A stretch of DNA of 50,446 nt from Deltaproteobacteria bacterium CG03_land_8_20_14_0_80_45_14 (lineage in GTDB: Bacteria; Desulfobacterota; BSN033; UBA1163): positions 1-50,446 of the forward strand of contig PEUO01000208.1 of NCBI GenBank assembly GCA_002780715.1, given 5' to 3'. A model generated the notes under the pieces. It was given only the letters and a program-made list of their open reading frames with translations. It ran no database searches and was not told the DNA's origin. A program made the position numbers and the translations under genes. How positions within the stretch are numbered: the stretch's first letter is position 1; each line of letters begins with the position of its first letter. Shown here piece after piece: positions 36,347 to 48,893 of the stretch.

Positions 36347-36444
36347 TTTGAAAAATTCTTTTTGGCATGTTACTAAAAAATACGCGACCGTGTCCCTGCC
36401 TACCGAAGGCAGGCGTGTCACGTCACCGTAATAGGAAGAAGGAG

Positions 36445-37512
36445 ATGTATCTATTCGATCTTGGGAAACTCCCTGGTCAGCAATCCATGCTCATCTTCCA
36501 TGCCCTTGCCCAATTGGGAATTGAGGCTCTTGTCATTGTCTCACCTAAAATTCCTCTTGTAAGCATTGGATATTTCCAGGACGCCGCAGAGGAAGTAGAT
36601 CTTCAATATTGCAGGGAATCCGGAATTCCTTTCATGAGACGAGAGGTGGGTGGAGGAGCTACTTATTTAGATGAGAATCAGATTTTCTATCAACTTATTT
36701 GGAAAAAATACAATCCAAAATTTCCCAAAGCGATTGATGAGATTTACCCGTGGTTCTCACAAGCGCCGGTGGACACTTACAGAACGTTCGGGATCGAGGC
36801 AGAATTTCGAACCGTGAATGACATTATCACAAGTACAGGAAGAAAGATTGCCGGGGAGGGTGGAGGAAACATCGGAGACTGTATGGTTTTCGTGGGCGGA
36901 ATCCTCCTCGATTTTGACTATCAAGCGATGAGTAGAATTCTGAAAGTGCCTGATGAGAAATTCAGGGATAAAGTTTATAAAACAATGGGAGAAAACCTGA
37001 CTACGATGAAGAGAGAATTAGGGATGATTCCATCGCGGGAAGAAGTCATCTCCGTTCTCAAAGAGAAATTTAAAAAAATAGTGGGGAAGTTGAAGCCAGC
37101 TTCATTGAACCCAGAAATTCTTGAGAACATGAGGCAAATAGAAGCTTGGATGACCTCAGAAGAATTTCTCTTAAAAAAGACTCCCAGAATTCCAGGAGGA
37201 GTTAAGATCAAGGAAGGCGTAGAGGTTCTCTATGGTCTCCATAAGGCCAGGGGAGGTCTGATTCGAACTACTGAGGAAATTTCAGAAGGAAAAATTGAAG
37301 GCATAAACATTTCTGGAGATTTTACATTTTATCCAAAAGAACGCCTCGATGGATTAGAGGGATCTTTAGAAAAGGTCTCTTTGAAAGAAGAGAAAATCAT
37401 CGAAAGGGTAGAAACTTACTATGAAAAAGAAGGGGTTGAATCACCCGGGGTGGAATCGAAAGACTTTGCAACGACGATTTTAAATCCTGTTAAGGATGCC
37501 GAAGTGGATTGA
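36445..37512 (+). CDS. lipoate-protein ligase A family protein
   Basis: A lipoyl/lipoate-protein ligase of about 355 residues. The N-terminal catalytic domain shows the RREVGGGATYLD motif (RRxSGGGxVxHD in LplA) and the active-site Lys region GRKIAGEGGGNIGD. The C-terminal part (KARGGLIRTTEEISEGKIEGI, GDFTFYP) is the accessory domain needed for lipoate activation, so a single polypeptide may carry both functions. AGGAAG lies six bases before the ATG at 36445. Its position after the lipoyl-carrier, CCG and cytochrome genes suggests it is dedicated to the GcvH-like protein of this cluster. Some LplA relatives are octanoyltransferases, so donor specificity is open. Confidence 0.82.
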   Translation: MYLFDLGKLPGQQSMLIFHALAQLGIEALVIVSPKIPLVSIGYFQDAAEEVDLQYCRESGIPFMRREVGGGATYLDENQIFYQLIWKKYNPKFPKAIDEIYPWFSQAPVDTYRTFGIEAEFRTVNDIITSTGRKIAGEGGGNIGDCMVFVGGILLDFDYQAMSRILKVPDEKFRDKVYKTMGENLTTMKRELGMIPSREEVISVLKEKFKKIVGKLKPASLNPEILENMRQIEAWMTSEEFLLKKTPRIPGGVKIKEGVEVLYGLHKARGGLIRTTEEISEGKIEGINISGDFTFYPKERLDGLEGSLEKVSLKEEKIIERVETYYEKEGVESPGVESKDFATTILNPVKDAEVD

Positions 37513-37761
37513 ATTAATAGTATTCTTATTAGACGTTAGAACCCGAATCTTTACCTCTTTGGTTTATCTCGTTTCTTTATTCTATTTTGTTTCTTTGGTT
37601 AACCAAACAAACCCGAGAAACGAAAATAACCAAATCAACCAGACTTCGCACTTCCAAAAATCCCCAAAAAGGTGTATATTCCAACCGTAAATTGACAATA
37701 GAGACATACTCCAAGCTCACCGGAGGGATGCCAATACGAACCGAAGGAATACGAATTCTGA
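37513..37761. other. 249-base boundary region left of the cassette array
   Basis: No gene is visible and no integrase remnant is recognisable. At 37561-37640 a large imperfect palindrome centred on TTTGGTTAACCAAA resembles the element at 15551-15630. A GTTAGAAC word at about 37534 could be a decayed recombination site, but this is weak. Confidence 0.5.
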
Positions 37762-37819
37762 TTCGAACAAGTCACTCCAGCGGATGGCTTAGAGCCACCG
37801 CTCAACTCCGCCGTTATGC
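37762..37819 (+). repeat. attC-like site 1
   Basis: R''-like TTCGAAC, arms AGCGGATGGCT and AGCCACCGCT pairing completely except for one unpaired A, and R' GTTATGC (37813-37819). This is the upstream boundary of the first cassette. Confidence 0.82.
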
Positions 37820-37879
37820 GGGATGAAATTGATTTTTCCTCGGTTTTTTGATATTCTTTCAAATATAGGAGGCGCTGCC

Positions 37880-38068
37880 ATGTCAAGTCTAATGGAGAAA
37901 GAACAAGCCCACAAACTGGTTGACCGGATGCCTGAAAACGCCACTTGGGATGACCTCATATATGAAATCTACGTGCGTGAAGTTATCGAACGGGGTTTAG
38001 CGGACAGCAGGGCCAACAGAACAAAAGACGTGAAAGAGGTTCGGGCGAAGTACGGCTTGCCGGAATGA
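37880..38068 (+). CDS. antitoxin of a ParE/RelE-type toxin-antitoxin pair
   Basis: A 62-residue acidic protein (MSSLMEKEQAHKLVDRMP...), with the WDDLIYEIYVREVIERGLADS segment typical of small antitoxins that precede RelE/ParE-type toxins. AGGAGG is placed seven bases before the ATG at 37880, and its stop overlaps the toxin's start (ATGA). It lies in cassette 1 between attC-like sites 1 and 2. No DNA-binding fold is obvious, though autoregulation would be expected. Confidence 0.75.
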   Translation: MSSLMEKEQAHKLVDRMPENATWDDLIYEIYVREVIERGLADSRANRTKDVKEVRAKYGLPE

Positions 38069-38364
38069 AAGTTTACTGGACAGATACAGCAGAGGGACAT
38101 CTTGACGCCATCTACGCTTACATTGCCCAAGACTCTCCCCAGTATGCCAAGCGAATGGTGGATCGGCTTACCCGGCGATCGCAGCAGATCGCTGATTTTC
38201 CTCTCTCCGGACGCAAAGTGCCGGAATACAAAATGGACCAGATTCGAGAGGTGATCGAGGGGCTATACCGGATCATCTATCACATCAAATCGGACCAAAT
38301 CGATGTTTTGGCCGTCATTCATGGCTCCCAGGATATTCTTCGCCAAGATAAAAAAGAAGACTGA
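38065..38364 (+). CDS. ParE/RelE superfamily toxin
   Basis: A 99-residue toxin of the RelE/ParE fold. Recognisable are the N-terminal VYWTDTAEGHLDAIYAYIA, the middle IADFPLSGRKVPE, and the C-terminal strand region YRIIYHIKSDQIDVLAVIHGSQD. The RxxxP-type end and lack of catalytic His/Arg/Lys set of RelE suggest a ParE-like gyrase toxin, but this cannot be decided by eye. It overlaps its antitoxin by four bases. Toxin-antitoxin modules are common in large cassette arrays, where they may stabilise the array. Confidence 0.88.
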   Translation: MKVYWTDTAEGHLDAIYAYIAQDSPQYAKRMVDRLTRRSQQIADFPLSGRKVPEYKMDQIREVIEGLYRIIYHIKSDQIDVLAVIHGSQDILRQDKKED

Positions 38365-38422
38365 CCTTGAGGACAATAGGACAGCCACCATTTAGTTTTT
38401 TTGAAAGTAAAATTAAAATAAA

Positions 38423-38480
38423 CCCTAACGAATCACTCCAGCGGATGGCTGATAGCCACCGCTGATTTTTATCGTATACC
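38423..38480 (+). repeat. attC-like site 2
   Basis: R'' CCCTAAC, arms AGCGGATGGCT and AGCCACCGCT with one unpaired A, R'-like GTATACC. The arms are the same as in site 1. Confidence 0.8.
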
Positions 38481-38622
38481 TCTTAAAATAGGGAACGGGA
38501 GGCTGTCCCTGGGCTATTTTGAAACACAAAAAGATTTTTTGAGACATGCATAGGCTTATTTTTTAGGAAACCATGGCAACAATATAGAAAAAAGTTTGGG
38601 AGTTCAAAGGAGAAGATTGGCA

Positions 38623-39567
38623 GTGGAAGGGAATGAAGCAACCCTCGACACCGTAAATGTCTATTTGAAGCAATTGCAAGAAACGGTAGAGCGCATTAGA
38701 GAACAGTTTTTGGAGCCAGTCCTGAGGCAACGAGAGGCATTTCAGCAATGGATGCAGCCAATAATCGAAGCTCAGAACGCATTACAAGAAACACTTGAAC
38801 CGATTTTGGCGGAGCAAAAACGGTGGAAGAACGTGGTTGAATCAATACAAATTTCAAAATATACACTCCCTGATATCTCTCAGATAGTGCAGCCTTCTTT
38901 AGAGTTTCAGAAATCTATTCAGGGTCTTATAACCCCAGCTTTCGAACAACTGCAAGAGAGCTTTCGGAGACTACCTCCTCGTACACAGGAAGCTGTTCTA
39001 TTACTTGGTGAGCACGGTTGGTACCTCGATCTAGAGATGCCAATCCCTGGTCTATGGGAGCTCAAAAAAGCTTTATCTGAAGGAAACGTAGAAGAAGCCG
39101 AGGAAGCACTAGCTGAATATTTCACTGGCAGATTAGACGAGATTGAAGCCTCGATCATTGAAAGATTTCCAAACAGACAAAAGATGATAAGAGCTGCGTT
39201 TAATGCACACCGGAGACAGGAGTATGAGCTTTCAATACCCGTTTTCCTGGCTCAAACGGACGGAATCTGTAAAGAAGTAATAAAGCAATACTTGTTCATT
39301 AAACAAAATAGAAAACCAAGAACTGCAATTTACGTAGAACAAATAGCATCGAACACCTTTAGGGCAGCACTATTGCAGCCGCTCGCTCACCCTCTTCCCA
39401 TCGCTGCTTCAGAGCGAGAGAGAGCAAAAGGCTTTAATGAATTAAATAGGCATATGGTGCTTCACGGTGAATCTTTGGATTATGGAACTCAGATAAATAG
39501 CTTAAAGGCGATATCGCTAATCAATTATGTGGCGCGTGTACTTACATTGGACGATAAGAATCCCTAA
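38623..39567 (+). CDS. HEPN-type (RX4H) cassette protein with coiled-coil N-terminus
   Basis: I infer a two-part protein. The first 130 residues are helical and rich in Gln and Glu, a likely coiled coil. The C-terminal half ends with FNELNRHMVLHGESLDYGTQ, where R-H-M-V-L-H matches the RX4H active-site motif of HEPN ribonucleases, a fold used by many toxins and abortive-infection effectors. Start choice is uncertain: GTG at 38623 (nine bases after AAAGGAG) is preferred over TTG codons at 38617 and 38596. The stop codon is part of the R'' box of the next attC-like site. No antitoxin partner is evident in the cassette. Confidence 0.6.
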   Translation: MEGNEATLDTVNVYLKQLQETVERIREQFLEPVLRQREAFQQWMQPIIEAQNALQETLEPILAEQKRWKNVVESIQISKYTLPDISQIVQPSLEFQKSIQGLITPAFEQLQESFRRLPPRTQEAVLLLGEHGWYLDLEMPIPGLWELKKALSEGNVEEAEEALAEYFTGRLDEIEASIIERFPNRQKMIRAAFNAHRRQEYELSIPVFLAQTDGICKEVIKQYLFIKQNRKPRTAIYVEQIASNTFRAALLQPLAHPLPIAASERERAKGFNELNRHMVLHGESLDYGTQINSLKAISLINYVARVLTLDDKNP

Positions 39568-39648
39568 CATGCCATGCAATTAACCACCTTTCCGCCGGTG
39601 CACTTCGCTACGCGGCTCCAAGGCGGCAATTGATAGCCAGGGTTATAT
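39562..39648 (+). repeat. attC-like site 3 (long form)
   Basis: R'' CCCTAAC overlaps the preceding stop codon; arms CCGCC/GGCGG and CAATT/AATTG; R'-like GTTATAT at 39642-39648. The loop is longer than in the other sites (87 bases overall), which is within the natural range of attC sites. Confidence 0.65.
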
Positions 39649-39694
39649 CCCAATGCATATTTCGATTGATTGTAGGCCGTTTATTGGATAGACA

Positions 39695-42600
39695 ATGATA
39701 GACACATATATCAAAAAGATCGCATCGATAACAAAGCGAGGAGATGCTCGTGAGGAATCCTACTATCCTGCCCTTGCGGCACTTCTCGAAGAGTTCTCCG
39801 AAACGGAGAGAAAAAAGAAGGCCCACGTCACCGTGCTGCCAAAGAAGACCGAAGCAGGCAATCCAGACTTTCGAGTCTGGGACGGCAAGCATTCTCAAGT
39901 CGGCTACGTTGAAGCGAAGCAGCCCAGAGCTAATCTCGATGAAATTGAGACTTCCGACCAATTGAAGCGTTACATTTCCACATTTCCTAATCTCATCCTG
40001 ACAAACTTCTATGAGTTCCGGCTCTACCGTAACGGCCAGCGTGTTGACAATGTCCTGCTTGCGCGCCCGTATATTCCGACAAAACTAAAAACCATTCCTC
40101 CTGCTGAGCATACCGTTGAGTTCCTGGCCTTACTGGAGAGGTTCTTTCAATTCTCCCTACCGACGAAGTTTACCGCTGAGAGTCTTGCAAAAGAACTCGC
40201 CACACGCACGCGCTTCCTCAGAGATCAAGTGATCAAAGAGGAACTCCGCGAGGCATCCGACGCAGGCGCGAAAAAGATTCTTGGATTCTATGAGGCGTTC
40301 CAGAAACATCTCATTTTCAACCTTAAGCCGGATGACTTTGCCGACCTGTATGCCCAAACCATAACCTATGGTCTCTTTGCCGCGAGAACCCGAGCCAATG
40401 GAGTATTCAATCGAATCCTGGCTTACGATCTGATTCCCAAGACTATCGGTATCTTGCGCGAAATCTTCCACTTCGTTTCATTCGACCCACCAGAGCAGCT
40501 CCAGGCGACCGTTGATGACATTGCGGAAGTCCTCGCCGTCGCGGATGTCAGGAACATTCTTCAGCAGTATTTCAAAGAGGGCAAAGGAAGCGATCCGATT
40601 TTTCATTTCTATGAGACCTTTCTTGCCGAGTACAACCCTCAAGAGCGTGAGCGACGAGGCGTTTATTATACGCCTGAACCCGTTGTCTCATACATTGTCC
40701 GTTCTCTTAACACCATCCTCAAGGAGAAATTCGCACGGCAGGACGGGTTTGCCACGCAATCCGTTACCGTACTCGATCCTGCTGGCGGAACGCTCACCTT
40801 CCTCGCCGAAGCGGCAAGGCTTGCCGTGAAGGAATTTGTCAGCAAGTACGGTGAAGGCTCAAAGGGAAAATTCATTGAGGATCACATTCTCAAGCACTTC
40901 TTCGCCTTCGAGTTGATGATGGCTCCATACGCAGCAGGCCACTTGAAGATGGGTTACCTCTTAGAAGAGTTGGGCCACAAGCTCTCAGGCGATGAACGGT
41001 TCCAGTTCTATCTGACGAATACGCTTGAAATGGAGGAGCTTGCCCAAACATCTCTTCCGGGAATGGCTTCCCTTTCGGAAGAATCCCACCTTGCCGGCAA
41101 AGTAAAGAGAGAGAGGCCCATTCTTGTTATTCTCGGCAATCCGCCGTACTCCGGACACTCAGCAAACAAAGGCGATTGGATTAGGGATCAAATCGAGACC
41201 TATAAGAGGATTGATGGGAAACCCCTTGGCGAGAAAAATCCCAAGTGGCTTCAGGATGACTACGTCAAGTTCATCCGATTCGCCCAGTGGAAGATTGACC
41301 AGATCGGCGAAGGTGTTCTCGGGTTTATCACGAATCACAGCTATCTCGATAACCCTACCTTCCGAGGGATGCGGCAATCGCTCATGAACTCATTTGACGA
41401 AATATACATCCTCGATCTTCACGGCAATTCACTCAAAAAAGAAAAAGCTCCTGATGGCTCTAAAGACGAAAACGTGTTTGACATACAGCAAGGCGTCGCT
41501 ATTGCCCTTTTTGTGAAAAAGAAGCAGAGTACCGCCCCCAAAATCTTGAAGCATAGTGAGATTTGGGGTGTGCGAGAACGTAAATACGAATGGCTGATAA
41601 AGCATGAGTTGAAAAAAACAGATTGGAGCGAGCTTAAACCCGTTTCACCCTTCTACCTGTTCGTTCCAAGAGATGAAAGATTGAACGTGCGGTTCCAATC
41701 GTATCCGAGCATTCCAGCGATTTTCCCTGTGAACAGCGTAGGAATTGTGACGGCCAGAGATCATTTTGTTATCGACTTTCAGAAAGCTCCGCTTCAACGT
41801 CGCATTGAGCAGTTTGCCAACTCTTCTTTTGACGATAGTTTCATCGCTCAAGCATTTAATCTGAAAGACTCTGGTGCCTGGGAGTTAAAGGCCGCACGAA
41901 AGAAGGTTATTGATGACAAAGAAAGAGGCAAACACTACACCCAAATTCTTTATCGTCCGTTTGATATCCGGCACTTGTTCTATCATGATGCTGTCATTGA
42001 ACGTGGACGTCGAGAAGTCATGCTGCATATGTTGCAACCTAATCTCGCCATTATCTCGCCTCGTCGCGTTGAAACCGCTATTCCCTGGTCACACGTTTTC
42101 TTGTCGAACCAACTGGTCGAGCACGTTGCTGTCTCTTTGAAAACGATTGACTACTGTTTTCCGCTGTATCTATATGTAGAATCTGGCTCGGGCGGTTCTG
42201 GTCGTGCGGGCCGATTCTCTCATTATCAAGCTGCGTTCATATTTGAACCGGCAGCAGCGTACTCGGTCCGCCGCCCAAACCTCAGTTCTAAGCTGCTAAT
42301 TTCGCTGGCGAATTCTTACAAACGACAACCAACGCCCGAAAAAATCTTCCATTACATCTATGGTCTTCTCTTTTCGAATGCTTACCGGAAAAAATATGCG
42401 GAGTTCTTGAAGACCGATTTTCCCCGCGTCCCCTTCACAAAAGATTACAAGCTTTTTAACAAACTTGCCGAAAAGGGCGAGGAGCTTGTTGATCTCCACC
42501 TGCTCAAATCCAAGAAGCTTTTCAAACCTATCGCAAAGTGTGAAGGCTCTGGCAACCTCCGTGTGGACAAAGTAAGTTACGATCAAAACAAGGCTCATGT

Positions 42601-42841
42601 TCACATTAACCCTGAGAAATGGTTTACCGATATTCCTCTTGAGGTCTGGGAATATCACACCGGCGGCTATCAGGTCTCGGAGAAATGGCTCAAGGACCGG
42701 AAGGGCAGGGAGCTTTCATCCGAAGAAGTAGCTCACTACACAAGGGTGGTAACAGCCATCGCAGAGACAATCAGAATACAAGAAAGTTTAGATGAATTGT
42801 TCAAAGAAGTCGAAACAAACCTGCTCGAAGTGAGGCTGTGA
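39695..42841 (+). CDS. fused nuclease-DNA methyltransferase (type ISP/IIG-like) restriction enzyme
   Basis: A 1048-residue restriction-modification protein. The N-terminal nuclease shows a PD-(D/E)XK-type set: GNPDFRVWDG (Asp58) and VGYVEAKQP (Glu73, Lys75). From about residue 355 the gamma-class N6-adenine methyltransferase begins, with motif I DPAGGTLTFLAEA and motif IV NPPYSGHS (about 482). The remainder would be target recognition. Type ISP enzymes carry a helicase between nuclease and methylase and are about 1,500-1,600 residues, but I see no helicase here, so a type IIG-like enzyme may fit better. It occupies one cassette of about 3.3 kb, very large for an integron cassette. Confidence 0.8.
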   Translation: MIDTYIKKIASITKRGDAREESYYPALAALLEEFSETERKKKAHVTVLPKKTEAGNPDFRVWDGKHSQVGYVEAKQPRANLDEIETSDQLKRYISTFPNLILTNFYEFRLYRNGQRVDNVLLARPYIPTKLKTIPPAEHTVEFLALLERFFQFSLPTKFTAESLAKELATRTRFLRDQVIKEELREASDAGAKKILGFYEAFQKHLIFNLKPDDFADLYAQTITYGLFAARTRANGVFNRILAYDLIPKTIGILREIFHFVSFDPPEQLQATVDDIAEVLAVADVRNILQQYFKEGKGSDPIFHFYETFLAEYNPQERERRGVYYTPEPVVSYIVRSLNTILKEKFARQDGFATQSVTVLDPAGGTLTFLAEAARLAVKEFVSKYGEGSKGKFIEDHILKHFFAFELMMAPYAAGHLKMGYLLEELGHKLSGDERFQFYLTNTLEMEELAQTSLPGMASLSEESHLAGKVKRERPILVILGNPPYSGHSANKGDWIRDQIETYKRIDGKPLGEKNPKWLQDDYVKFIRFAQWKIDQIGEGVLGFITNHSYLDNPTFRGMRQSLMNSFDEIYILDLHGNSLKKEKAPDGSKDENVFDIQQGVAIALFVKKKQSTAPKILKHSEIWGVRERKYEWLIKHELKKTDWSELKPVSPFYLFVPRDERLNVRFQSYPSIPAIFPVNSVGIVTARDHFVIDFQKAPLQRRIEQFANSSFDDSFIAQAFNLKDSGAWELKAARKKVIDDKERGKHYTQILYRPFDIRHLFYHDAVIERGRREVMLHMLQPNLAIISPRRVETAIPWSHVFLSNQLVEHVAVSLKTIDYCFPLYLYVESGSGGSGRAGRFSHYQAAFIFEPAAAYSVRRPNLSSKLLISLANSYKRQPTPEKIFHYIYGLLFSNAYRKKYAEFLKTDFPRVPFTKDYKLFNKLAEKGEELVDLHLLKSKKLFKPIAKCEGSGNLRVDKVSYDQNKAHVHINPEKWFTDIPLEVWEYHTGGYQVSEKWLKDRKGRELSSEEVAHYTRVVTAIAETIRIQESLDELFKEVETNLLEVRL

Positions 42842-42881
42842 GCAGAACCAAACAAGCAACAAAAATTGGCAATACCATGTA

Positions 42882-42931
42882 TCTTAATTCAGCGAACGGC
42901 TAAAAGCCTCCGCTGATTTCAGTCGTTGAGT
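42882..42931 (+). repeat. attC-like site 4
   Basis: Arms CAGCGAACGGCT and AGCCTCCGCTGA, R' GTTGAGT (a full match to GTTRRRY) at 42925-42931, degenerate R'' TCTTAAT. Confidence 0.75.
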
Positions 42932-42948
42932 CTATAGGAAAAGGCCAA

Positions 42949-43743
42949 ATGACTGATCAAAGTGGACATTGGAGATGGAATGTGAATCCCACATGGGAGC
43001 ATTTTTCATCTCTTTGCCAAGAGTCTAATGAGGCAATCTTAGCCCCAAATGATTTCTTCAAATATCATCATATCAAGGCGTGTTTATATTTCGGAATCGG
43101 GTCTATAGAATCCTTTCTCAACGAGTCAATGAGAAAAAAATTGCATTCGGAGGGCATTGAAGAAGAGAAAATTTATAAAAAACTTCGTTATGAAGGTTTT
43201 CGTGAAAAGGTAAAAAAATGGCCATCTGTGTTGGCCGAGCAAAGCATTAGCATTCCAGAAGAAGTGGTAGAATTAATTAACGATTATGGAGATCTTCGTG
43301 GTGAGGTTACCCATCCCAAAGCCAGAAATCATTCAATTTATAAGCTCCTCGACAATGTCCACGTCTCTAATATGCCCATTATTGTTGCGGAATTTATAGT
43401 TAGGGTATTGGAAGCATGTCGACAAACGTTCCCATATTGGTTACTCGGATGGAATTATATTGGAATGAATGGAGATGAGAATTGGCCGGCGCTTATCAAT
43501 AACCAACAATTTATGTTTTCTTTGTACTCATTCGGATTTAAAGTGCCGATACCATTGGCTGATGAAATGTCGAAGTGGGAAGCTCAACATATGTCAACCC
43601 TCCGCGGTTTCCAGTCTCTATCAGTCAACTTAGCCCAACTTAGTCGCTGCGAACTTAAGGATAAACGTTTTCCAAAGAAACCGCGCTTATGTAAGGAATG
43701 GTGGGATAAGGACCATAAAAAATCCTGTGGTGTAGTATTCTAA
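42949..43743 (+). CDS. HEPN-like cassette protein
   Basis: A 264-residue protein with the segment YGDLRGEVTHPKAR, in which Arg117 and His122 form an RX4H motif as in HEPN-fold proteins (the usual LRNxxxHP pattern). The preceding half is helical with an aromatic-rich N-terminus (HWRWNVNPTWEHF), and the C-terminus is basic with scattered Cys. It may be a toxin or a structural HEPN protein without catalysis. There is no recognisable antitoxin or nucleotidyltransferase next to it. Its stop codon lies inside the R'' box TTCTAAC of the next attC-like site, a hallmark of cassette genes. Confidence 0.6.
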   Translation: MTDQSGHWRWNVNPTWEHFSSLCQESNEAILAPNDFFKYHHIKACLYFGIGSIESFLNESMRKKLHSEGIEEEKIYKKLRYEGFREKVKKWPSVLAEQSISIPEEVVELINDYGDLRGEVTHPKARNHSIYKLLDNVHVSNMPIIVAEFIVRVLEACRQTFPYWLLGWNYIGMNGDENWPALINNQQFMFSLYSFGFKVPIPLADEMSKWEAQHMSTLRGFQSLSVNLAQLSRCELKDKRFPKKPRLCKEWWDKDHKKSCGVVF

Positions 43744-43810
43744 CTTCCGCCTGCAGCGGACGGCTACCTTGGCTCTCGCTAAGTCTCTGCGGCTGAACGA
43801 ACGGTTGGAA
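43738..43810 (+). repeat. attC-like site 5
   Basis: R'' TTCTAAC overlaps the stop of the upstream gene, CAGCGGACGGCT arm, and R'-like GTTGGAA at 43804-43810. Confidence 0.7.
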
Positions 43811-44121
43811 TGAACTAAACACTTAGAAACGGGGTCAAAGCTAAACTATACGTCTTAGAGAGTGGGGTCAACGACAGCTACCATTTAGCAGGTGAGACAA
43901 TGGAACTTCATAAGTTCCCCCAGCGGACTGTTGATAGCCGCTGCTCATTTTGGGCATTGGGCTGAGAGATCGATGGCCAGAATGCGGAAAACAATATCGG
44001 CGCTTAAACAAAAGCAGTTGCTTCAGGAAGAGCAGGAAATTTGAGGGTCAGACTTGAGTATTGAATTAATAAGAAGTATCACCTAACTGAGACGGCTGGT
44101 AGCTACCGTTGAGTTTTCGCG
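43811..44121 (+). other. two short cassettes without a convincing gene
   Basis: Between attC-like sites 5 and 7 the two intervals (about 150 and 165 bases, separated by site 6) have no open frame longer than 23 codons on the plus strand; the best is MARMRKTISALKQKQLLQEE at about 43973. They may be ORF-less cassettes, carry a small RNA, or be decayed. Confidence 0.5.
43908..43962 (+). repeat. attC-like site 6
   Basis: CCAGCGGACTGTTGATAGCCGCTG core with R'-like ATTGGGC (GTTGGGC with one change) at 43956-43962 and degenerate R'' TCATAAG. Confidence 0.6.
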
Positions 44122-44127
44122 TTGACT
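44081..44127 (+). repeat. attC-like site 7
   Basis: R'' ACCTAAC (full match to RYYYAAC), core GACGGCTGGTAGCTACCG, R'-like GTTGACT at 44121-44127. The shortest site, at 47 bases. Confidence 0.72.
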
Positions 44128-44168
44128 AGATGAAACGAAATTTATTTTGAAGTATAATGGGTGTAAAG

Positions 44169-44429
44169 ATGCCGGAGATATGTCGATTCTATGGTATAAT
44201 TATAGGGATGTTTTTTGATGATCATAACCCACCCCATTTTCATGCCCGGTATGGAAAGGAAAAGGTAGCAGTCGAGATAAACTCTCTGCGTGTATTGGAG
44301 GGGCGAATTCCTCCTCGAGCTTTAGGGCTTGTAATGGAATGGGCGTCTCAACACCAGAGCGAGTTGCTGCAAAATTGGGAGCTGGCGAAAAATAACCAAC
44401 CCCCAGAGAAAATTGCGTCTTTGGCGTAG
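44169..44429 (+). CDS. DUF4160 domain-containing protein
   Basis: An 86-residue protein of the DUF4160 type. The diagnostic core is YGIIIGMFFDDHNPPHFHARYG, with conserved His residues that suggest a small metal or nucleic-acid-binding site. The ATG at 44169 is preferred over 44157 because the family starts MPEI; a TATAAT lies just upstream. DUF4160 and DUF2442 genes are often adjacent and have been proposed to form toxin-antitoxin-like pairs. The downstream gene starts 14 bases after its stop, without an attC site between, so both share one cassette. Confidence 0.85.
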   Translation: MPEICRFYGIIIGMFFDDHNPPHFHARYGKEKVAVEINSLRVLEGRIPPRALGLVMEWASQHQSELLQNWELAKNNQPPEKIASLA

Positions 44430-44442
44430 ATGGAGGTCTATG

Positions 44443-44763
44443 ATGATCCACGATGTTGTTTCTGCATCTTATAAGGGTGAATACAAGATTGAAGTGACAT
44501 TCGATGATGGGAAGGAAGGGGTCGTAGATTTCTCAAAATATCTTGACAAAGGGGGCGTCTTTAGCCGTTTCAAGGATATTAATTTTTTCAGGAACTTTAA
44601 AATAAACCAAGAGCTCGGGGTTCTCACCTGGCAGGATGGGATAGACGTCGCGCCAGAGACACTTTATGCGGAAGCCACTGGGACATCGCTTCCGAATTGG
44701 ATGGAAAAGAAGCGAAAATCTTCAGCGAACAAGACACTACGGACGGCTAATAATCGCCGCTGA
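44443..44763 (+). CDS. DUF2442 domain-containing protein
   Basis: A 106-residue protein with the DUF2442 pattern: YKIEVTFDDGKEGVVDFSKYL, GVFSRFKDINFF, and GVLTWQDGIDVAPETLY. GGAGG lies six bases before the second of two ATGs (44440 and 44443). The last residues (LRTANNRR) are encoded by the downstream attC-like site, and the stop TGA lies within its L' arm, so the original C-terminus was probably altered when the cassette formed. It is the likely partner of the DUF4160 protein. Confidence 0.85.
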   Translation: MIHDVVSASYKGEYKIEVTFDDGKEGVVDFSKYLDKGGVFSRFKDINFFRNFKINQELGVLTWQDGIDVAPETLYAEATGTSLPNWMEKKRKSSANKTLRTANNRR

Positions 44764-44778
44764 TTTCAGTCGTTTGTA
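44724..44778 (+). repeat. attC-like site 8
   Basis: Arms GGACGGC and GCCGCTGA, R'-like GTTTGTA at 44772-44778; the reading frame of the DUF2442 gene ends inside it. Confidence 0.7.
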
Positions 44779-44786
44779 GTGAATAT

Positions 44787-45002
44787 ATGAATTTGAAGAA
44801 AGTCAATTCAAGCATGGTATATGCAATAGGGTACGACTCCAAGTCGAAAACCTTGGAAGTGGTTTTTAGGAGCGGAAAGGCATGGGGATACGAGGAGGTT
44901 CCGAAAAAGGTATACCAAGAATTATTAAAATCAGAATCGATTGGATCATACATGCGCGAGAATATCATCGATTGCTATCCATCCTATCCCATTAGACGAT
45001 AA
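44787..45002 (+). CDS. KTSC domain-containing protein
   Basis: A 71-residue protein that is essentially one KTSC domain (a small domain also found at the C-terminus of some lysyl-tRNA synthetases). The pattern VNSSMVYAIGYDSKSKTLEV, FRSGKAWGYEEVP and SIGSYMREN with the final Tyr-Pro is clear. The function is unknown. It shares a cassette with the next gene, since no attC-like site lies in the 13-base gap. Confidence 0.88.
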   Translation: MNLKKVNSSMVYAIGYDSKSKTLEVVFRSGKAWGYEEVPKKVYQELLKSESIGSYMRENIIDCYPSYPIRR

Positions 45003-45015
45003 GATTCCCAAAACA

Positions 45016-45384
45016 ATGACAAAGAAAAGAACAAGAATGAAAGACTACATTGGGACCTGGAGAATCACGGAAATGGATCAATGGGACATGGATTACATTG
45101 ACATGGAATCGCCCGGCCGCATTGTCATAGACAAGAATGGACAAGGCAAGATTCACTTTGGGGCTGTCGACGTTGAGATAGACTGCAGGTTAGAGTCACA
45201 TGGAGGGGGTGCTCGCCTTGGATTCTCATTTGAAGGAAATGACGAATGTGATCCTGTGAGTGGGCGAGGATGGGCCTTGATAGATGGAGAAGAAATGGCA
45301 GGACATATCTTCTTTCATTTGGGTGACGACTCAGAATTCAAGGCGAAGAGGCAGAATAAAAAGCCACTAAGAAGCGCTGAATGA
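45016..45384 (+). CDS. uncharacterised cassette protein (MKDYIGTWRI family)
   Basis: A 122-residue protein with no assigned function. It contains the segment MKDYIGTWRITEMDQWDMDYI followed by a beta-rich middle (KIHFGAVDVEIDCRLE, LGFSFEGNDECDPVSGRGWALI) and a closing HIFFHLGDDSEFKAKR. The pattern suggests a small lipocalin-like or jelly-roll beta barrel. ATG at 45016 is used; the conserved part begins at the ATG at 45037, and neither has a ribosome site. The protein is acidic and soluble. Confidence 0.65.
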   Translation: MTKKRTRMKDYIGTWRITEMDQWDMDYIDMESPGRIVIDKNGQGKIHFGAVDVEIDCRLESHGGGARLGFSFEGNDECDPVSGRGWALIDGEEMAGHIFFHLGDDSEFKAKRQNKKPLRSAE

Positions 45385-45437
45385 ATCACTGTAGAAGGGG
45401 CCATCTGCTACCATAAAGCCCCTTACAAAAGATTACT
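45385..45437 (+). repeat. possible degenerate attC-like site 9
   Basis: Arms GTAGAAGGGGC (45391-45401) and GCCCCTTAC (45418-45426) pair except for two unpaired bases, and GATTACTC could be a decayed R' box. Boundary boxes are poor. Confidence 0.35.
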
Positions 45438-45465
45438 CACCACCTTAAGCCTTTGTGATGATAAT

Positions 45466-46050
45466 ATGTCTCTTAGACCGATAACATATAAAAACAGAAG
45501 ATCTCAAACCTTTTATCTCCATCAAGGCAAAACAAAAATAGGTCGTCCAAACTATTTCTTTTCGTTAAAGAGCTCTGGCCCTTTGGCTGATACTATGCCT
45601 GAAGGGTATGAAATGTATGAAAATCCAAGAGGCCAAGTCTTCCTATGTAAAAAGCAACCTAAATTGATTAGTGACTCTGAAATCAGAGTTGTGGATGAAG
45701 GCATGAGGAAATATTCCGGCATAGAGTATTACAGGCTCGATATCAAGAAGAATACCATCATCGTTTATTTGGTAGATCAGGATATGGAAACGATAGGAGA
45801 GCTACTTCCTGAAAGGTATATTCTCAAGTACGGCGGTACGGAGAAGGCCCTGGATTCCATATTGGAATATTCACCCATGATGAGGTTTGTTCTGACGGAT
45901 GATGAGAAAAGGAGGTTTGTAGTGGAAAGATATTGTTTTCTTGGGTCAATAGACGATTGGATAAACATAGGTGGACCTGATAAGTTGGAGAATCTGACAA
46001 AAAGGTATTTAAAGCATTTAGGGAAAGAGTCATTCTTCGAGCTATTCTAA
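45466..46050 (+). CDS. uncharacterised cassette protein
   Basis: A 194-residue soluble protein that I cannot place. It has the features FYLHQGKTKIGRPNYFFSL, MPEGYEMYENPRGQVFLCKK, and a C-terminal half with alternating strands and helices (EYSPMMRFVLTDDEKRRFVV, GSIDDWINIGGPDKLENLTK). Proteins with the HQGKTKxGxPxYFFS segment occur in many bacteria as hypothetical genes. It lies between attC-like sites 9 and 10. Confidence 0.6.
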   Translation: MSLRPITYKNRRSQTFYLHQGKTKIGRPNYFFSLKSSGPLADTMPEGYEMYENPRGQVFLCKKQPKLISDSEIRVVDEGMRKYSGIEYYRLDIKKNTIIVYLVDQDMETIGELLPERYILKYGGTEKALDSILEYSPMMRFVLTDDEKRRFVVERYCFLGSIDDWINIGGPDKLENLTKRYLKHLGKESFFELF

Positions 46051-46054
46051 TCTA

Positions 46055-46111
46055 TCCTAACAAACTGTGGGGCATGCGGATAACCCGTGCCACTTGGTCA
46101 GAATGTTGGGA
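46055..46111 (+). repeat. attC-like site 10
   Basis: R'' TCCTAAC at 46055-46061, arms GTGGGGCA and TGCCAC, R'-like GTTGGGA at 46105-46111. The last recognisable site of the array. Confidence 0.7.
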
Positions 46112-46132: not shown

Positions 46133-46930
46133 ATGAAAGACCCAGTACAACCACTGGCAGAAGTTTTTGGGCATTTGATAACAGATCACTCCGAAAAGGC
46201 CTATCGATACCGGTCTCGTCGTCTTTGTCCATTTAACAACAAGGTACCGAATTGCACAAAAGACAAAGCGAAAGACCCACTTGGAGTTTGTAGCATTTAT
46301 CACGAAAATCAACCTGTGATCACCTGCCCCATTCGCTTTCGTGAGGACTGGATAATTACAGACGATGCTGCATCTTTTTTCTTTCGCGAAGGAACGAATT
46401 GGAGCTCTCTCACAGAAGTCCGATTGAATGACTCAAAGGGTAAATCCGCTGGAAACATTGATGTTGTGCTCGTTGCTTACGATGCCAAAAGTAAGGTATA
46501 TGATTTTGGAGCACTGGAAATCCAGGCAGTTTACATTTCCGGAAACGTGCGTGATCCTTTTGAGTACTTCATGAAATATCCGAAAGCACGAGCATCAATG
46601 GATTGGGCAAAGGAGCCGAATTATCCAAGACCTGATTATCTTTCATCTTCCCGGAAAAGACTTGCTCCCCAACTTCTCTTCAAAGGCGGCATCCTTCACG
46701 GTTGGAGAAAGAAGATCGCCGTGGCTCTAAATAAAACTTTCTTTGATACGCTACCGAAATTGAAGCATGTTTCAAGGTCCAAAGCAGATATAGCATGGTT
46801 CATCTACGATTTAGAACTGATTGAAGATAGAAAACATGGGCCAGGAAGATACACTCTGAAGAAGGTTGACGAAGTATTCACAGAGTTCCAATCTTTCACT
46901 CAGAACTCTATGGTCTTCGATCTTCATTAA
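46133..46930 (+). CDS. NotI-family restriction endonuclease
   Basis: A 265-residue type II restriction endonuclease of the NotI family. The iron-binding Cys set is in LCPFNNKVPNCTKDKA and PLGVCSI followed by ITCPIRF; the catalytic PD-(D/E)XK variant is GNIDVVLVAYD with FGALEIQAVY (Asp, Glu-x-Gln), as in NotI. Length is shorter than NotI itself, but the catalytic and iron-binding parts are complete. AAAGGG precedes the ATG. There is no cognate cytosine methyltransferase in the window. It occupies the last cassette; an attC site after the gene is not visible. Confidence 0.9.
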   Translation: MKDPVQPLAEVFGHLITDHSEKAYRYRSRRLCPFNNKVPNCTKDKAKDPLGVCSIYHENQPVITCPIRFREDWIITDDAASFFFREGTNWSSLTEVRLNDSKGKSAGNIDVVLVAYDAKSKVYDFGALEIQAVYISGNVRDPFEYFMKYPKARASMDWAKEPNYPRPDYLSSSRKRLAPQLLFKGGILHGWRKKIAVALNKTFFDTLPKLKHVSRSKADIAWFIYDLELIEDRKHGPGRYTLKKVDEVFTEFQSFTQNSMVFDLH

Positions 46931-46998: not shown

Positions 46999-48123
46999 TT
47001 ACGATAGGATTTCCTTCAATGCTCCCGTCAGACAATGGATATATCGGAGCTTGCAGGTCTCTCCCATGAGGCCGACTCTCCATATTTTTCCCTTCAGTCG
47101 GCCTAAACCTCCTCCTACTTCGATGTTATACTCGTTCAGAAGCCTCGACCGTATCTTGGCATCGTCGGCCCAATCAGGGATAGTCACAGAGGTCAACATA
47201 GGCAAACGATACCCATCTTGCGCGAAAGGTTTGAACCCAAACCCTTCCAGTTCCATCTTTAAACGGTCGCCCAAAACCTCATGGCGCCGAAATCTTGCCC
47301 CGAGTCCTTCTTCAAAGACAATCCTCAGCCCTTCCCTTAATGCATAAAACATCGATACAGGAGCGGTGTGATGATAAACCCTTTCTTCTCCCCAATATTT
47401 TTCAAGCAATAATAAATCAAGATAAAAACTCTGAACCTTTGTCTTGCGGGACCTGAGGACATCCATCGCTTTGGGGCTCACGGTGATTGGAGAAAGCCCT
47501 GGTGGAACGCTAAGACACTTTTGGGAACTACCGTAGCAGACGTCAACTCCCCATTCGTCAACCTTCACATCATATCCTCCCAAAGTGGTCACAGCATCCA
47601 CCACCAGAAGGGTGCTCCCTTTTTTGCAGTTAGCCCCAATCTCTTCAAGCGGCTGCCTCACTCCGGTGGAAGTCTCCCCATGAACGACGCCACAGATCTT
47701 GGCCTCGGGATGTTCCTTTAAGGCCTTGACCATTTTTTCCGGCTCAATCATCTTTCCCCAATCCTGATCGACCCGAATGACCTGAGCGCCACAGCGGGAA
47801 GCCACCTGAGTCATCCTTTCTGCAAAGAAGCCGTTTACTCCAATGACAACAACATCTCCAGGCTCAACGAAATTGACAAACGAAGCCTCCATCCCTGAAC
47901 TCCCGGTAGCAGAGATAGCCAGAGTGACCTGGTTTTTTGTCTGGAAAATGCCTCTTAACATCTCACTGATCTCGTCCATACAGGCCAGAATTTGGGGATC
48001 AAGATAACCGATGACCGGGTTAGACATGGCTTGATAAACCCGGTAATGGACATTGCTCGGCCCGGGGCCCATAAGAATCCGATAGCTCGGATGCATATCT
48101 CCTCCCATCCATTTTTCCATCAT
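46999..48123 (-). CDS. class V aminotransferase: alanine/serine-glyoxylate aminotransferase-like
   Basis: A PLP-dependent fold type I aminotransferase of about 374 residues, in the alanine-glyoxylate / serine-glyoxylate transaminase group. Key segments are RILMGPGPSNVHYRVYQAM, the glycine-rich SATGSSGMEASF, VVDAVTTLGGYDVKVDEWG (PLP Asp region) and the PLP lysine in YGSSQKCLSVPPGLSP. The start ATG at 48123 overlaps the preceding stop (TGATG); an in-frame ATG at 48096 also has GGGAGG before it. With the glycolate oxidase and malyl-CoA lyase-like genes, it would remove glyoxylate to glycine. Confidence 0.85.
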   Translation of the reverse strand: MMEKWMGGDMHPSYRILMGPGPSNVHYRVYQAMSNPVIGYLDPQILACMDEISEMLRGIFQTKNQVTLAISATGSSGMEASFVNFVEPGDVVVIGVNGFFAERMTQVASRCGAQVIRVDQDWGKMIEPEKMVKALKEHPEAKICGVVHGETSTGVRQPLEEIGANCKKGSTLLVVDAVTTLGGYDVKVDEWGVDVCYGSSQKCLSVPPGLSPITVSPKAMDVLRSRKTKVQSFYLDLLLLEKYWGEERVYHHTAPVSMFYALREGLRIVFEEGLGARFRRHEVLGDRLKMELEGFGFKPFAQDGYRLPMLTSVTIPDWADDAKIRSRLLNEYNIEVGGGLGRLKGKIWRVGLMGETCKLRYIHCLTGALKEILS

Positions 48124-48893
48124 CAAACCTCCTCTAAATCAATTTTCATTCCATCGCTGGCAGCAATTACTTTCAATCCCAATTCTTTCTCTAATTCAGC
48201 AGCCACGACCCAGGGTTTAGCTTTGATCATCGTCATCCCAAAATGGGTCAGGATGGTCAATCTCGGCTTTGCTTTCTTGAGAATACTTTTCACATCTTCG
48301 ATCGAGAGGTGATCGATTGGATCATCCCCAATCGGTTTAAGCCGAACGACATGAATGACCAGGATCTCTCCTCGATAAAGGTTCAGGAGCTCCGGAAAAA
48401 ATTTTGTATCAGTGATAAACGAAATTGTACGGGGCGATATTTTAAAATTGAGCCCATAGGTCTCTACTCGGTGTTGATGCCTTTGGGCAGTCGAGAACCG
48501 GATGTCCCCGATCAGATATTCCGAATCCTCCTTCAACACCTCCACTTTTTTAACATAACCCATCGCATATTTTAAAACAACTGGATCTTCCTCCAGAGCA
48601 TCCCTGGGCGCAAACAGAACCCCCTTTTTTTTGAATCCTCCATCTGTCATGGCCTCAATCATAATGTTGACATCACCGGAATGGTCTAAGTGTTTATGGG
48701 TGAGGAGAATACCGTCCAATGTGGATGGTTCTAATCTGGGTTTGCTGCTGAGACACCGAACCAGAGCGCCAGGTCCCGGATCGATATAGAGATTCGTTTT
48801 CCCCACTGAGAGCCAGACGCCACCCGAGGCTCGGAGTTGTTTCATCACCACAAATCGGGCGCCTGCCGTGCCTAAAAATTTGATGAAAGACAT
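48123..48893 (-). CDS. MBL-fold metallohydrolase
   Basis: A metallo-beta-lactamase-fold hydrolase of 256 residues. The zinc-binding motif is THKHLDHSGD, with the later His in LTHFGM and the preceding IDPGPGALV strand typical of the fold. It resembles the tRNase Z/ribonuclease BN or phosphodiesterase side of the superfamily more than glyoxalase II, but the substrate cannot be read. Its stop codon overlaps the start of the aminotransferase gene, so the two are co-translated. No signal peptide. Confidence 0.85.
   Translation of the reverse strand: MSFIKFLGTAGARFVVMKQLRASGGVWLSVGKTNLYIDPGPGALVRCLSSKPRLEPSTLDGILLTHKHLDHSGDVNIMIEAMTDGGFKKKGVLFAPRDALEEDPVVLKYAMGYVKKVEVLKEDSEYLIGDIRFSTAQRHQHRVETYGLNFKISPRTISFITDTKFFPELLNLYRGEILVIHVVRLKPIGDDPIDHLSIEDVKSILKKAKPRLTILTHFGMTMIKAKPWVVAAELEKELGLKVIAASDGMKIDLEEV

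What the first reader, a model, noticed from the sequence alone, without database searches (positions are those of the whole stretch)
37762..46111. Integron-type cassette array without integrase (CALIN), loaded with defence and toxin genes
About ten palindromic elements share attC architecture: R''-like and R'-like heptamers (ACCTAAC, TTCTAAC, CCCTAAC; GTTGAGT, GTTGACT, GTTATGC), AGCGGAYGGCT/AGCCNCCGCT arms and one unpaired base inside an otherwise perfect stem. Every gene between them lies on the plus strand, several stop codons are inside the R'' box, and cargo is unrelated to the flanking core genes. No intI is in the window. Chromosomal cassette arrays are well known in Vibrio and Xanthomonas but less documented in relatives of anaerobic Desulfobacterota.
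Basis: partly seen in the sequence, partly recalled or inferred. Interest (0 to 1): 0.9.

Follow-up and report, generated by a model that had tools for sequence, protein, structure and literature searches.

The report
Integrase-less cassette array with shared leader
A stretch of bacterial chromosome holds a row of mobile gene cassettes (restriction enzyme, toxin-antitoxin pairs and unknown genes) with no recombinase beside it; a sister species carries a reshuffled version at the same spot, and the row begins with part of a leader element that starts other such rows in the same bacterial family.

Summary
The finding is real: window 37.6-46.9 kb is an integron cassette array without integrase (CALIN). 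A covariance model built only from attC sites outside the window finds five sites here (S1, S2, S4, S6, S8; E 2e-11 to 1e-3), all + strand, and no other full-length site in the 50 kb. S3 rests on synteny, S5 and S10 on R boxes alone; S7 is a half site; S9 is not an attC. No intI is in the window, and no complete one was found in the 86.6%-complete genome, where three contigs hold internally deleted remnants. The flanking genes lie about 73 bp apart in one sister species. In another (Syntrophaceae bacterium UBA2188) the gap holds a smaller, reordered array; shared DNA starts exactly at an attC crossover point. Both arrays start with a promoter-like leader that is dispersed in the family. Elsewhere 22 loci keep its far end, attI-like in 19; 12 of the 22 are followed by attC sites, and no integron integrase was found in the fetched loci. 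The window surely keeps only the promoter half. The array is ordinary; the stand-alone attI-like leaders look new.

The parts
36367..37512 (+). left flanking core gene (lipoate-ligase-like name is my reading), outside the array
   Evidence: its match in G014:C15 ends 73 bp before that of the right flanking gene = empty site
37636..37706 (+). promoter half of the dispersed leader element (AAAAAGGTGTATATT...), left border of the array
   Evidence: R3 58.1 bits, but this copy is one of the 18 model seeds; nhmmer E 1.8e-8 with a profile that does not contain it; 65-bp block shared with the sister array; not in the G014 gap
37762..37819 (+). attC S1
   Evidence: R1 55.4 bits, E 2e-11
37880..38068 (+). 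ParD-like antitoxin (short)
   Evidence: weak NCBIfam RelB/ParD match E 0.099, far under its cut-off; partner position; 49 of 62 aa identical to the G015 copy
38065..38364 (+). ParE/RelE toxin
   Evidence: PF05016 E 1e-19; TIGR02385 over its cut-off
38423..38480 (+). attC S2 (R' degenerate)
   Evidence: R1 53.3 bits; R2 57 bits
38498..38591 (+). possible diverged attI half of the leader
   Evidence: nhmmer 17.3 bits, E 0.0014; attI matrix score 8.4, only second in the window: suggestive only
38596..39567 (+). 323-aa protein of unknown function; stop codon inside R'' of S3
   Evidence: no Pfam over cut-off; ORF end
39562..39648 (+). attC S3 (other type)
   Evidence: not found by R1/R2; shared DNA with the sister array starts at its GTT, 39642
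39695..42841 (+). type ISP / IIG restriction-modification enzyme
   Evidence: PF18135 E 2.4e-84; PADLOC REase_MTase_IIG E 1.5e-260
42874..42931 (+). attC S4 (R'' degenerate)
   Evidence: R1 30.5 bits at 42882-42931; homologous attC after the same gene in G015
42949..43743 (+). 264-aa protein of unknown function; stop codon inside R'' of S5
   Evidence: no Pfam match
43738..43810 (+). attC-like S5 (TTCTAAC...GTTGGAA)
   Evidence: R boxes only; not found by R1/R2; fold not better than shuffles
43905..43962 (+). attC S6 (R' ATTGGGC)
   Evidence: R1 24.9 bits, E 0.0011
44082..44129 (+). S7, attC right half
   Evidence: aligned in A1; not found by R1/R2
44157..44429 (+). DUF4160, DhiT-like toxin
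   Evidence: PF13711 E 5.6e-23; NF048015 84.5 bits, under its cut-off of 100
44443..44763 (+). DUF2442, DhiA-like antitoxin
   Evidence: PF10387 E 1.1e-16; NF048016 31.4 bits, under its cut-off of 200
44724..44778 (+). attC S8
   Evidence: R1 34.7 bits, E 3.7e-6
44787..45002 (+). KTSC-domain protein
   Evidence: PF13619 E 2.2e-19; 67 of 71 aa identical in G015
45044..45384 (+). unknown 114-aa ORF (only its beginning is left in the G015 array)
45466..46050 (+). unknown 194-aa protein
   Evidence: no family match
46055..46111 (+). attC-like S10 (TCCTAAC...GTTGGGA)
   Evidence: R boxes pair over 7 bases, one a G-T pair (sequence); not found by R1/R2; fold z -0.85
46133..46930 (+). probable type II restriction enzyme, last array gene; no attC found after it
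   Evidence: PADLOC REase_II E 1.3e-5; no NCBIfam match; no PDB match
46999..48126 (-). right flanking core gene (aminotransferase-like name is my reading), outside the array
   Evidence: 92% identical at the other side of the sister array

Best explanation
The region is a chromosomal cluster of integron gene cassettes without its own integrase, sitting between two convergent core genes. Cassettes were gained, lost and moved by IntI-type recombination at attC GTT points, the enzyme acting in trans from intI genes elsewhere in the genome or lineage. The array starts behind a promoter-like leader element, which in its full form elsewhere in the family ends in a stand-alone attI-like site. SHOWN: attC sites, shared cassettes in a different order in a sister species, an empty site in a third species, the leader's promoter half at the left border, intI remnants elsewhere in the genome. 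INFERRED: that IntI (not homologous recombination) moved the cassettes, that it acted in trans, that the leader drives transcription and once received cassettes at this locus. In this genome the system looks partly worn out (degenerate R boxes, deleted intI copies).
For: Five attC found by two models that contain no window site. R2 run on 78 of the 80 IntI loci of named records (two from G015 left out) gives 97 hits in 34 of the 78, and 91 of the 97 lie on the strand opposite to intI, the canonical layout. The same attC type lies in the array of a complete intI in G015:C108 and 2.4 kb from an intI remnant on own contig C76. The flank-gene matches are 73 bp apart in G014. G015 holds R-M, attC, ParDE, KTSC in the same gap; the window has ParDE, R-M, KTSC with further cassettes between; the shared R-M block starts at the GTT of S3 (win 39642) and runs into S4. 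The leader's promoter half is at the left border of both arrays. Of 135 leader hits used, 16 have an attC within 5 kb downstream on the same strand and 0 on the opposite strand. 22 loci keep the far end of the long leader, 19 of them with a GTT at the end; the tail matrix has its best match of the whole locus at the attI position in two complete integrons. Two own-genome leaders, 93% identical, diverge at G|TT.
Against: S5, S7, S9 and S10 are not supported as attC. No complete intI was found in this genome, which is only 86.6% complete. The attI half of the leader is at best weakly preserved in the window (17.3 bits) and was not found in the sister array. The ParDE move is one event and could in principle be homologous recombination. 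Of nine complete integrons with upstream sequence only two have an attI clearly like the leader tails, and the leader profiles find no significant match in any complete-intI locus held. 119 of 135 leader hits have no listed attC within 5 kb downstream, so the promoter half alone is not specific to cassette arrays. Three of the 22 leader ends have no GTT (G004:C9, G010:C16, G006:C192).
Confidence: 0.88

Rival explanations
1. A former complete integron at this very locus that lost intI and attI by deletion; the cassette differences between the two species arose before the loss.
For: intI copies in the own genome are deleted in three contigs; one of the three CALIN origins summarised in PMC8618304 (passage).
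Against: No intI scrap in the window or in the G015 locus; neither of two species keeps intI here, while both keep the leader's promoter half; other fetched leader loci of the family also have no integron integrase in them.
Confidence: 0.25
2. Cassettes were inserted off-target into an ordinary promoter region (attG-type insertion) by IntI elsewhere; the leader is only a common promoter that makes insertions visible to selection.
For: attG insertion is an established route (Loot 2024, seen as a citation in PMC11023631 and described in PMC12901181, passages); 119 of 135 leader hits have no listed attC within 5 kb downstream, for instance one in front of a dehydrogenase-like gene (gene name is my reading).
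Against: Long leaders are conserved for about 265 bp up to the GTT and then diverge, and their tails match the attI of two complete integrons; a random promoter would not end in attI.
Confidence: 0.3
3. Not integron at all: dispersed palindromic repeats or terminators at gene ends, mixed by homologous recombination.
For: A purely structural scan (paired R boxes plus stem) is not specific: 7 and 6 hits on the two strands of the window, 12 of the 13 outside the array.
Against: The covariance models, the same sites in arrays of complete intI, and the sharp block boundary at GTT.
Confidence: 0.03

Closest known systems
[quoted passage not shown] Cury 2016 as cited in PMC9024848 and PMC8618304; also PMC12444791)
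   Same: At least two attC, all in one orientation, cassettes with toxin-antitoxin and restriction genes, no intI nearby.
   Different: Headed by the promoter half of a family-specific leader; a sister species carries a reshuffled version at the orthologous place.
Xanthomonas CALINs at conserved secondary loci (PMC12444791, passages seen)
   Same: Integrase-less arrays at recurrent chromosomal places away from the intI locus; the paper says CALINs can be mobilised in trans.
   Different: No stand-alone attI-like leader is described in the passages I saw.
Integrons of Archaea and their bacterial relatives in MAGs (PMC9668308, passages seen)
   Same: Cassette arrays in uncultured organisms; toxin-antitoxin and restriction cargo; the paper states that CALIN cassettes can be excised in trans.
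   Different: Here the dynamics are seen by comparing two species and an empty site.
attG off-target insertions (Loot 2024; paper not read, cited in PMC11023631, described in PMC12901181)
   Same: Cassettes placed outside the intI-attI platform by IntI.
   Different: The long leaders are one homologous family ending in an attI-like sequence, not scattered consensus sites.

Membership tests
CALIN | at least two attC sites by covariance model | tested here: met
   five sites with R1 and R2; the published attC_4 model itself was not available
CALIN | no intI near the array | tested here: met
   tblastn of 11 family IntI on the window, best E 0.91; the right side is limited to 3.5 kb by the end of the window
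CALIN | genes between attC sites in one orientation, attC at gene 3' ends | tested here: met
   the ORFs taken as genes are all + strand; stop codons inside R'' of S3 and S5; the S5-S6 and S6-S7 intervals hold no ORF of 60 aa
CALIN | cassettes behave as mobile units | tested here: met
   order and content differ between G000 and G015 at the same locus, with the R-M block bounded by attC; one pair of species, no experiment
complete integron | intact intI with adjacent attI | tested here: not met
   no match over the TIGR02249 cut-off in the own genome; remnants only
stand-alone attI platform (proposed) | attI-like crossover without intI, head of an array | tested here: inconclusive
   In the family 22 loci keep the leader's far end, 19 with a GTT, 12 with attC within 5 kb downstream; for the window itself only the promoter half is certain
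stand-alone attI platform (proposed) | recombined by IntI in trans | not testable with these tools
   needs a recombination assay

The most novel reading that the evidence does not exclude
Distributed integron: in this Syntrophaceae-related family the integron platform is split up. Stand-alone platforms, each a promoter plus an attI-like site of one homologous leader family, are scattered over the chromosome, receive cassettes from IntI made elsewhere in the genome, and express them. The window's array is one such platform in decay. 22 loci with the leader's far end were found (14 nearly full length), 12 with attC downstream on the same strand; no integron integrase was found in the leader loci fetched, which hold about 0.5 to 6 kb upstream of the leader, except G015:C147, where the contig begins.
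Probability: 0.45. Interest if true: 0.75.

Novelty: new variant of a known kind. Interest (0 to 1): 0.55.

Why it matters
It turns a debated point, whether integrase-less cassette arrays are dead remnants or still exchanged in trans, into something testable: the same locus exists empty, with three shared cassettes, and with a longer reshuffled set in related species. If the long leaders are true attI sites, the usual one-intI-one-attI picture does not hold in this family, and searches that look for attI only beside intI would miss such platforms. The cargo (type ISP restriction enzyme with an exchanged specificity region, two toxin-antitoxin pairs, unknown genes) adds a possible source of defence genes in this lineage.

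Tried and rejected
Rfam at gathering scores: on the window only a tRNA; on seven leader loci only a group II intron.

A purely structural attC scan (paired R boxes, stem energy) was not specific and was dropped; it missed the true sites and hit other palindromes. Single-strand folds beat shuffles clearly only for S2 (z -4.85); S4 (-2.41), S9 (-2.38), S1 (-1.91) and S3 (-1.67) are intermediate, S6 (-1.12), S10, S8, S7 and S5 are not special. S9 folding better than most true sites shows that folding alone does not decide.

RNAalifold on 16 long leaders gave no consensus structure, so the leader is not claimed to be a structured RNA.

I first took the leader for an ordinary promoter; the directional link to attC and the attI-like end changed that. 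The promoter half alone is not specific.

C68 and C136 looked like one cassette behind two attI sites; only about 85 bp after GTT are shared, so I rely on C35 versus C68.

PDB search with the restriction-enzyme-like protein: no match at E up to 1. No structure prediction was run.
Full report
What was checked. 

attC sites. I built a covariance model (R1) from eight sites outside the window: five in arrays of complete intI genes of relatives (G015, G010, G008) and three on other contigs of the own genome. On the window it gives five sites, all + strand, at 37762-37819, 38428-38475, 42882-42931, 43905-43962 and 44724-44778 (55.4 to 24.9 bits), and otherwise only the reverse complement of one core (11.1 bits). 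A second model (R2, 34 sites outside the window, the R1 seeds among them) gives the same five. As a check, R2 was run on 78 of the 80 loci fetched by IntI similarity alone (two from G015 left out): 97 hits in 34 of the 78 loci, 91 of them on the strand opposite to intI; the six exceptions are all in L144. In the own genome R1 gives 33 matches at E up to 10, of which 27 at E up to 0.01 on 15 contigs. The remaining proposed sites are weaker: S3 is carried by synteny; S5 and S10 by complementary R boxes only; S7 is a half site; S9 is not an attC. Of the five detected sites two have a damaged R' (S2, S6) and one a damaged R'' (S4).

Cargo. A ParDE toxin-antitoxin pair (antitoxin match weak), a type ISP/IIG restriction-modification enzyme, a DhiTA-like pair (both under the NCBIfam cut-offs), a KTSC protein, a probable type II restriction enzyme, and four proteins without a family. 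The S5-S6 and S6-S7 intervals hold no ORF of 60 aa.

No integrase. tblastn of 11 family IntI finds nothing in the window better than E 0.91. In the own genome no match passes the integron-integrase cut-off. Three contigs (C41, C128, C76) hold the N-terminal extension followed by the C-terminal end with roughly 290-345 residues missing; C240 holds a 34-44% identical middle piece at a contig end. Of 17 genomes in the order, the own one included, 9 have at least one intI over the cut-off.

Synteny. The matches of the left flank gene (36367-37512) and right flank gene (46999-48126) lie 73 bp apart in G014:C15, the empty site. In G015:C4 they are 4.4 kb apart and the gap holds, in order, the restriction-modification gene, an attC (R2 24.9 bits), ParDE, a worn S8-like site and KTSC. 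In the window ParDE comes before the restriction gene and further cassettes lie between. The shared restriction block starts at window 39642, the GTT of S3, and ends inside S4; the KTSC block starts in S8; the ParDE block starts about 30 bp after the R' of S1, so its edge is less exact. In G016 the two flank genes lie on different contigs, with an unrelated kinase-like gene in the gap (the gene name is my reading). The two restriction enzymes are 78-100% identical per 50 alignment columns except for six consecutive 50-column stretches in the C-terminal specificity part (18-54%), which has been exchanged.

Leader. A 65-bp block left of the first site is shared by the window and G015 arrays (53 of 66 columns) but is not in the G014 gap. 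Its motif gives 18 hits in five genomes of the genus, against one for the reversed pattern. A sequence model of those 18 (R3) has hits in 15 of 17 family genomes. Of the 135 leader hits used (of 164), 16 have an attC within 5 kb downstream on the same strand, 0 downstream on the opposite strand, and 1 upstream on each strand. Seven of the 16, window and G015:C4 among them, were in the model's seed set. Longer alignments show that the long members are conserved for about 265 bp and end in ...CAGCATAAAAAATAATG|TTRGRY, after which the sequences differ. I count 22 loci that keep that end, 14 of them nearly full length: 19 come from two DNA searches of 17 genomes with the leaders of G015:C147 and G000:C35, three more from loci fetched before. 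Nineteen of the 22 have a GTT there; G004:C9, G010:C16 and G006:C192 do not. Twelve of the 22 have an attC within 5 kb downstream on the same strand, among the 19 from the DNA searches ten, both query loci included; G014:C189 is cut by the contig end after about 0.7 kb. In the ten further loci read to look for missed attC (L196-L205), two gained one (G010:C16, G015:C32); G000:C136 has only a weak hit (E 0.034), upstream. A matrix of 18 tails has its best match of the whole locus 288 bp and 152 bp upstream of intI, in cassette direction, in two complete integrons (L036, L037; scores 21.4 and 22.9); in 1.37 million positions of the 80 named intI loci the highest score is 16.5. The other seven complete integrons with upstream sequence do not show it clearly, and the leader profiles find no significant match in complete-intI loci, so the likeness is confined to the tail. 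The C-terminal part of the own intI remnant on C128 is closest to that same lineage (86-88% over 42 residues), its N-terminal part to the IntI of G015:C108 (55%). Two own-genome leaders (C35, C68) are 93% identical up to G|TT and then carry different sequence. No integron integrase was found in 33 leader loci or in 18 further stretches, upstream ones included, apart from one distant recombinase about 3 kb upstream of the G004:C18 leader (27-39% identity over 44-175 residues).

For the window itself the promoter half (37645-37706, E 1.8e-8) is certain; an attI-half match at 38498-38591 is weak (17.3 bits, E 0.0014), and the matrix score there (8.4) is only second in the window, behind an unrelated place (11.4).

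Reading. The array is a CALIN by the tests I could make. The best mechanism is exchange of cassettes by IntI in trans, at an integrase-less platform behind a promoter-like leader; the trans step and the promoter activity are inferred. The bolder reading, scattered stand-alone attI platforms, rests on sequence only.

Literature. IntegronFinder 2 (PMC9024848), archaeal integrons (PMC9668308), Natural History of Integrons (PMC8618304), Xanthomonas integrons (PMC12444791), Treponema integrons (PMC3607928), PMC11023631, PMC12901181 and PMC13064858 were seen as passages only. CALIN mobilisation in trans is stated in PMC9668308 and PMC12444791; defence genes in chromosomal integrons are in print (Darracq 2025, seen as a citation in PMC13064858). 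I saw no paper on stand-alone attI leaders in the listings; searches matched 224 and 190 papers and listed 15 and 20, and the library holds open-licence papers only.

Noticed in passing
G000 C41 (L038:978-1364), C128 (L039:5418-5762), C76 (L040:2571-2845); also G008:C94 (L025), G016:C67 (L018): intI copies in which the N-terminal extension is followed by the C-terminal end with a large internal deletion; five cases with different end points, three of them in frame by the coordinates (C41, C128, G008:C94). Cause unknown.
   Followed up: partly
L035:8768-10060 and relatives L027-L037; named loci L085-L164: Nine of the eleven family IntI over the cut-off read as 415-469 aa (L027 377, L034 369 and cut by its contig start), with an extra N-terminal region of roughly 100 residues; full-length relatives occur in records titled Nitrospirae, Omnitrophota, Scalindua, Verrucomicrobia and others.
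   Followed up: no
window 41517-42329 versus L077:3562-4341: The specificity part of the type ISP restriction enzyme has been exchanged between the two species while both ends stay 83-87% identical in DNA.
   Followed up: partly
L181:3055-3219 (G010:C138): Group II intron match (RF02001) downstream of a leader with attC sites.
   Followed up: no
window 45385-45440: Palindrome without attC boxes after the 114-aa ORF; perhaps a terminator.
   Followed up: no
window 38596-39567 and 42949-43743: Both unknown proteins carry an R-x4-H stretch (NRHMVLHG; LRGEVTH) reminiscent of HEPN nucleases; the motif is recalled, not tested.
   Followed up: no
L144 (JADHWG010000004.1): Six attC hits on the same strand as intI, unlike the other 33 loci with hits; intI on the same strand as its cassettes is described for Treponema (PMC3607928, passage).
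   Followed up: no
leader hits without listed attC, e.g. L166 (G013:C133), L174 (G015:C123): The promoter half of the leader also stands in front of genes without a detectable attC nearby.
   Followed up: partly
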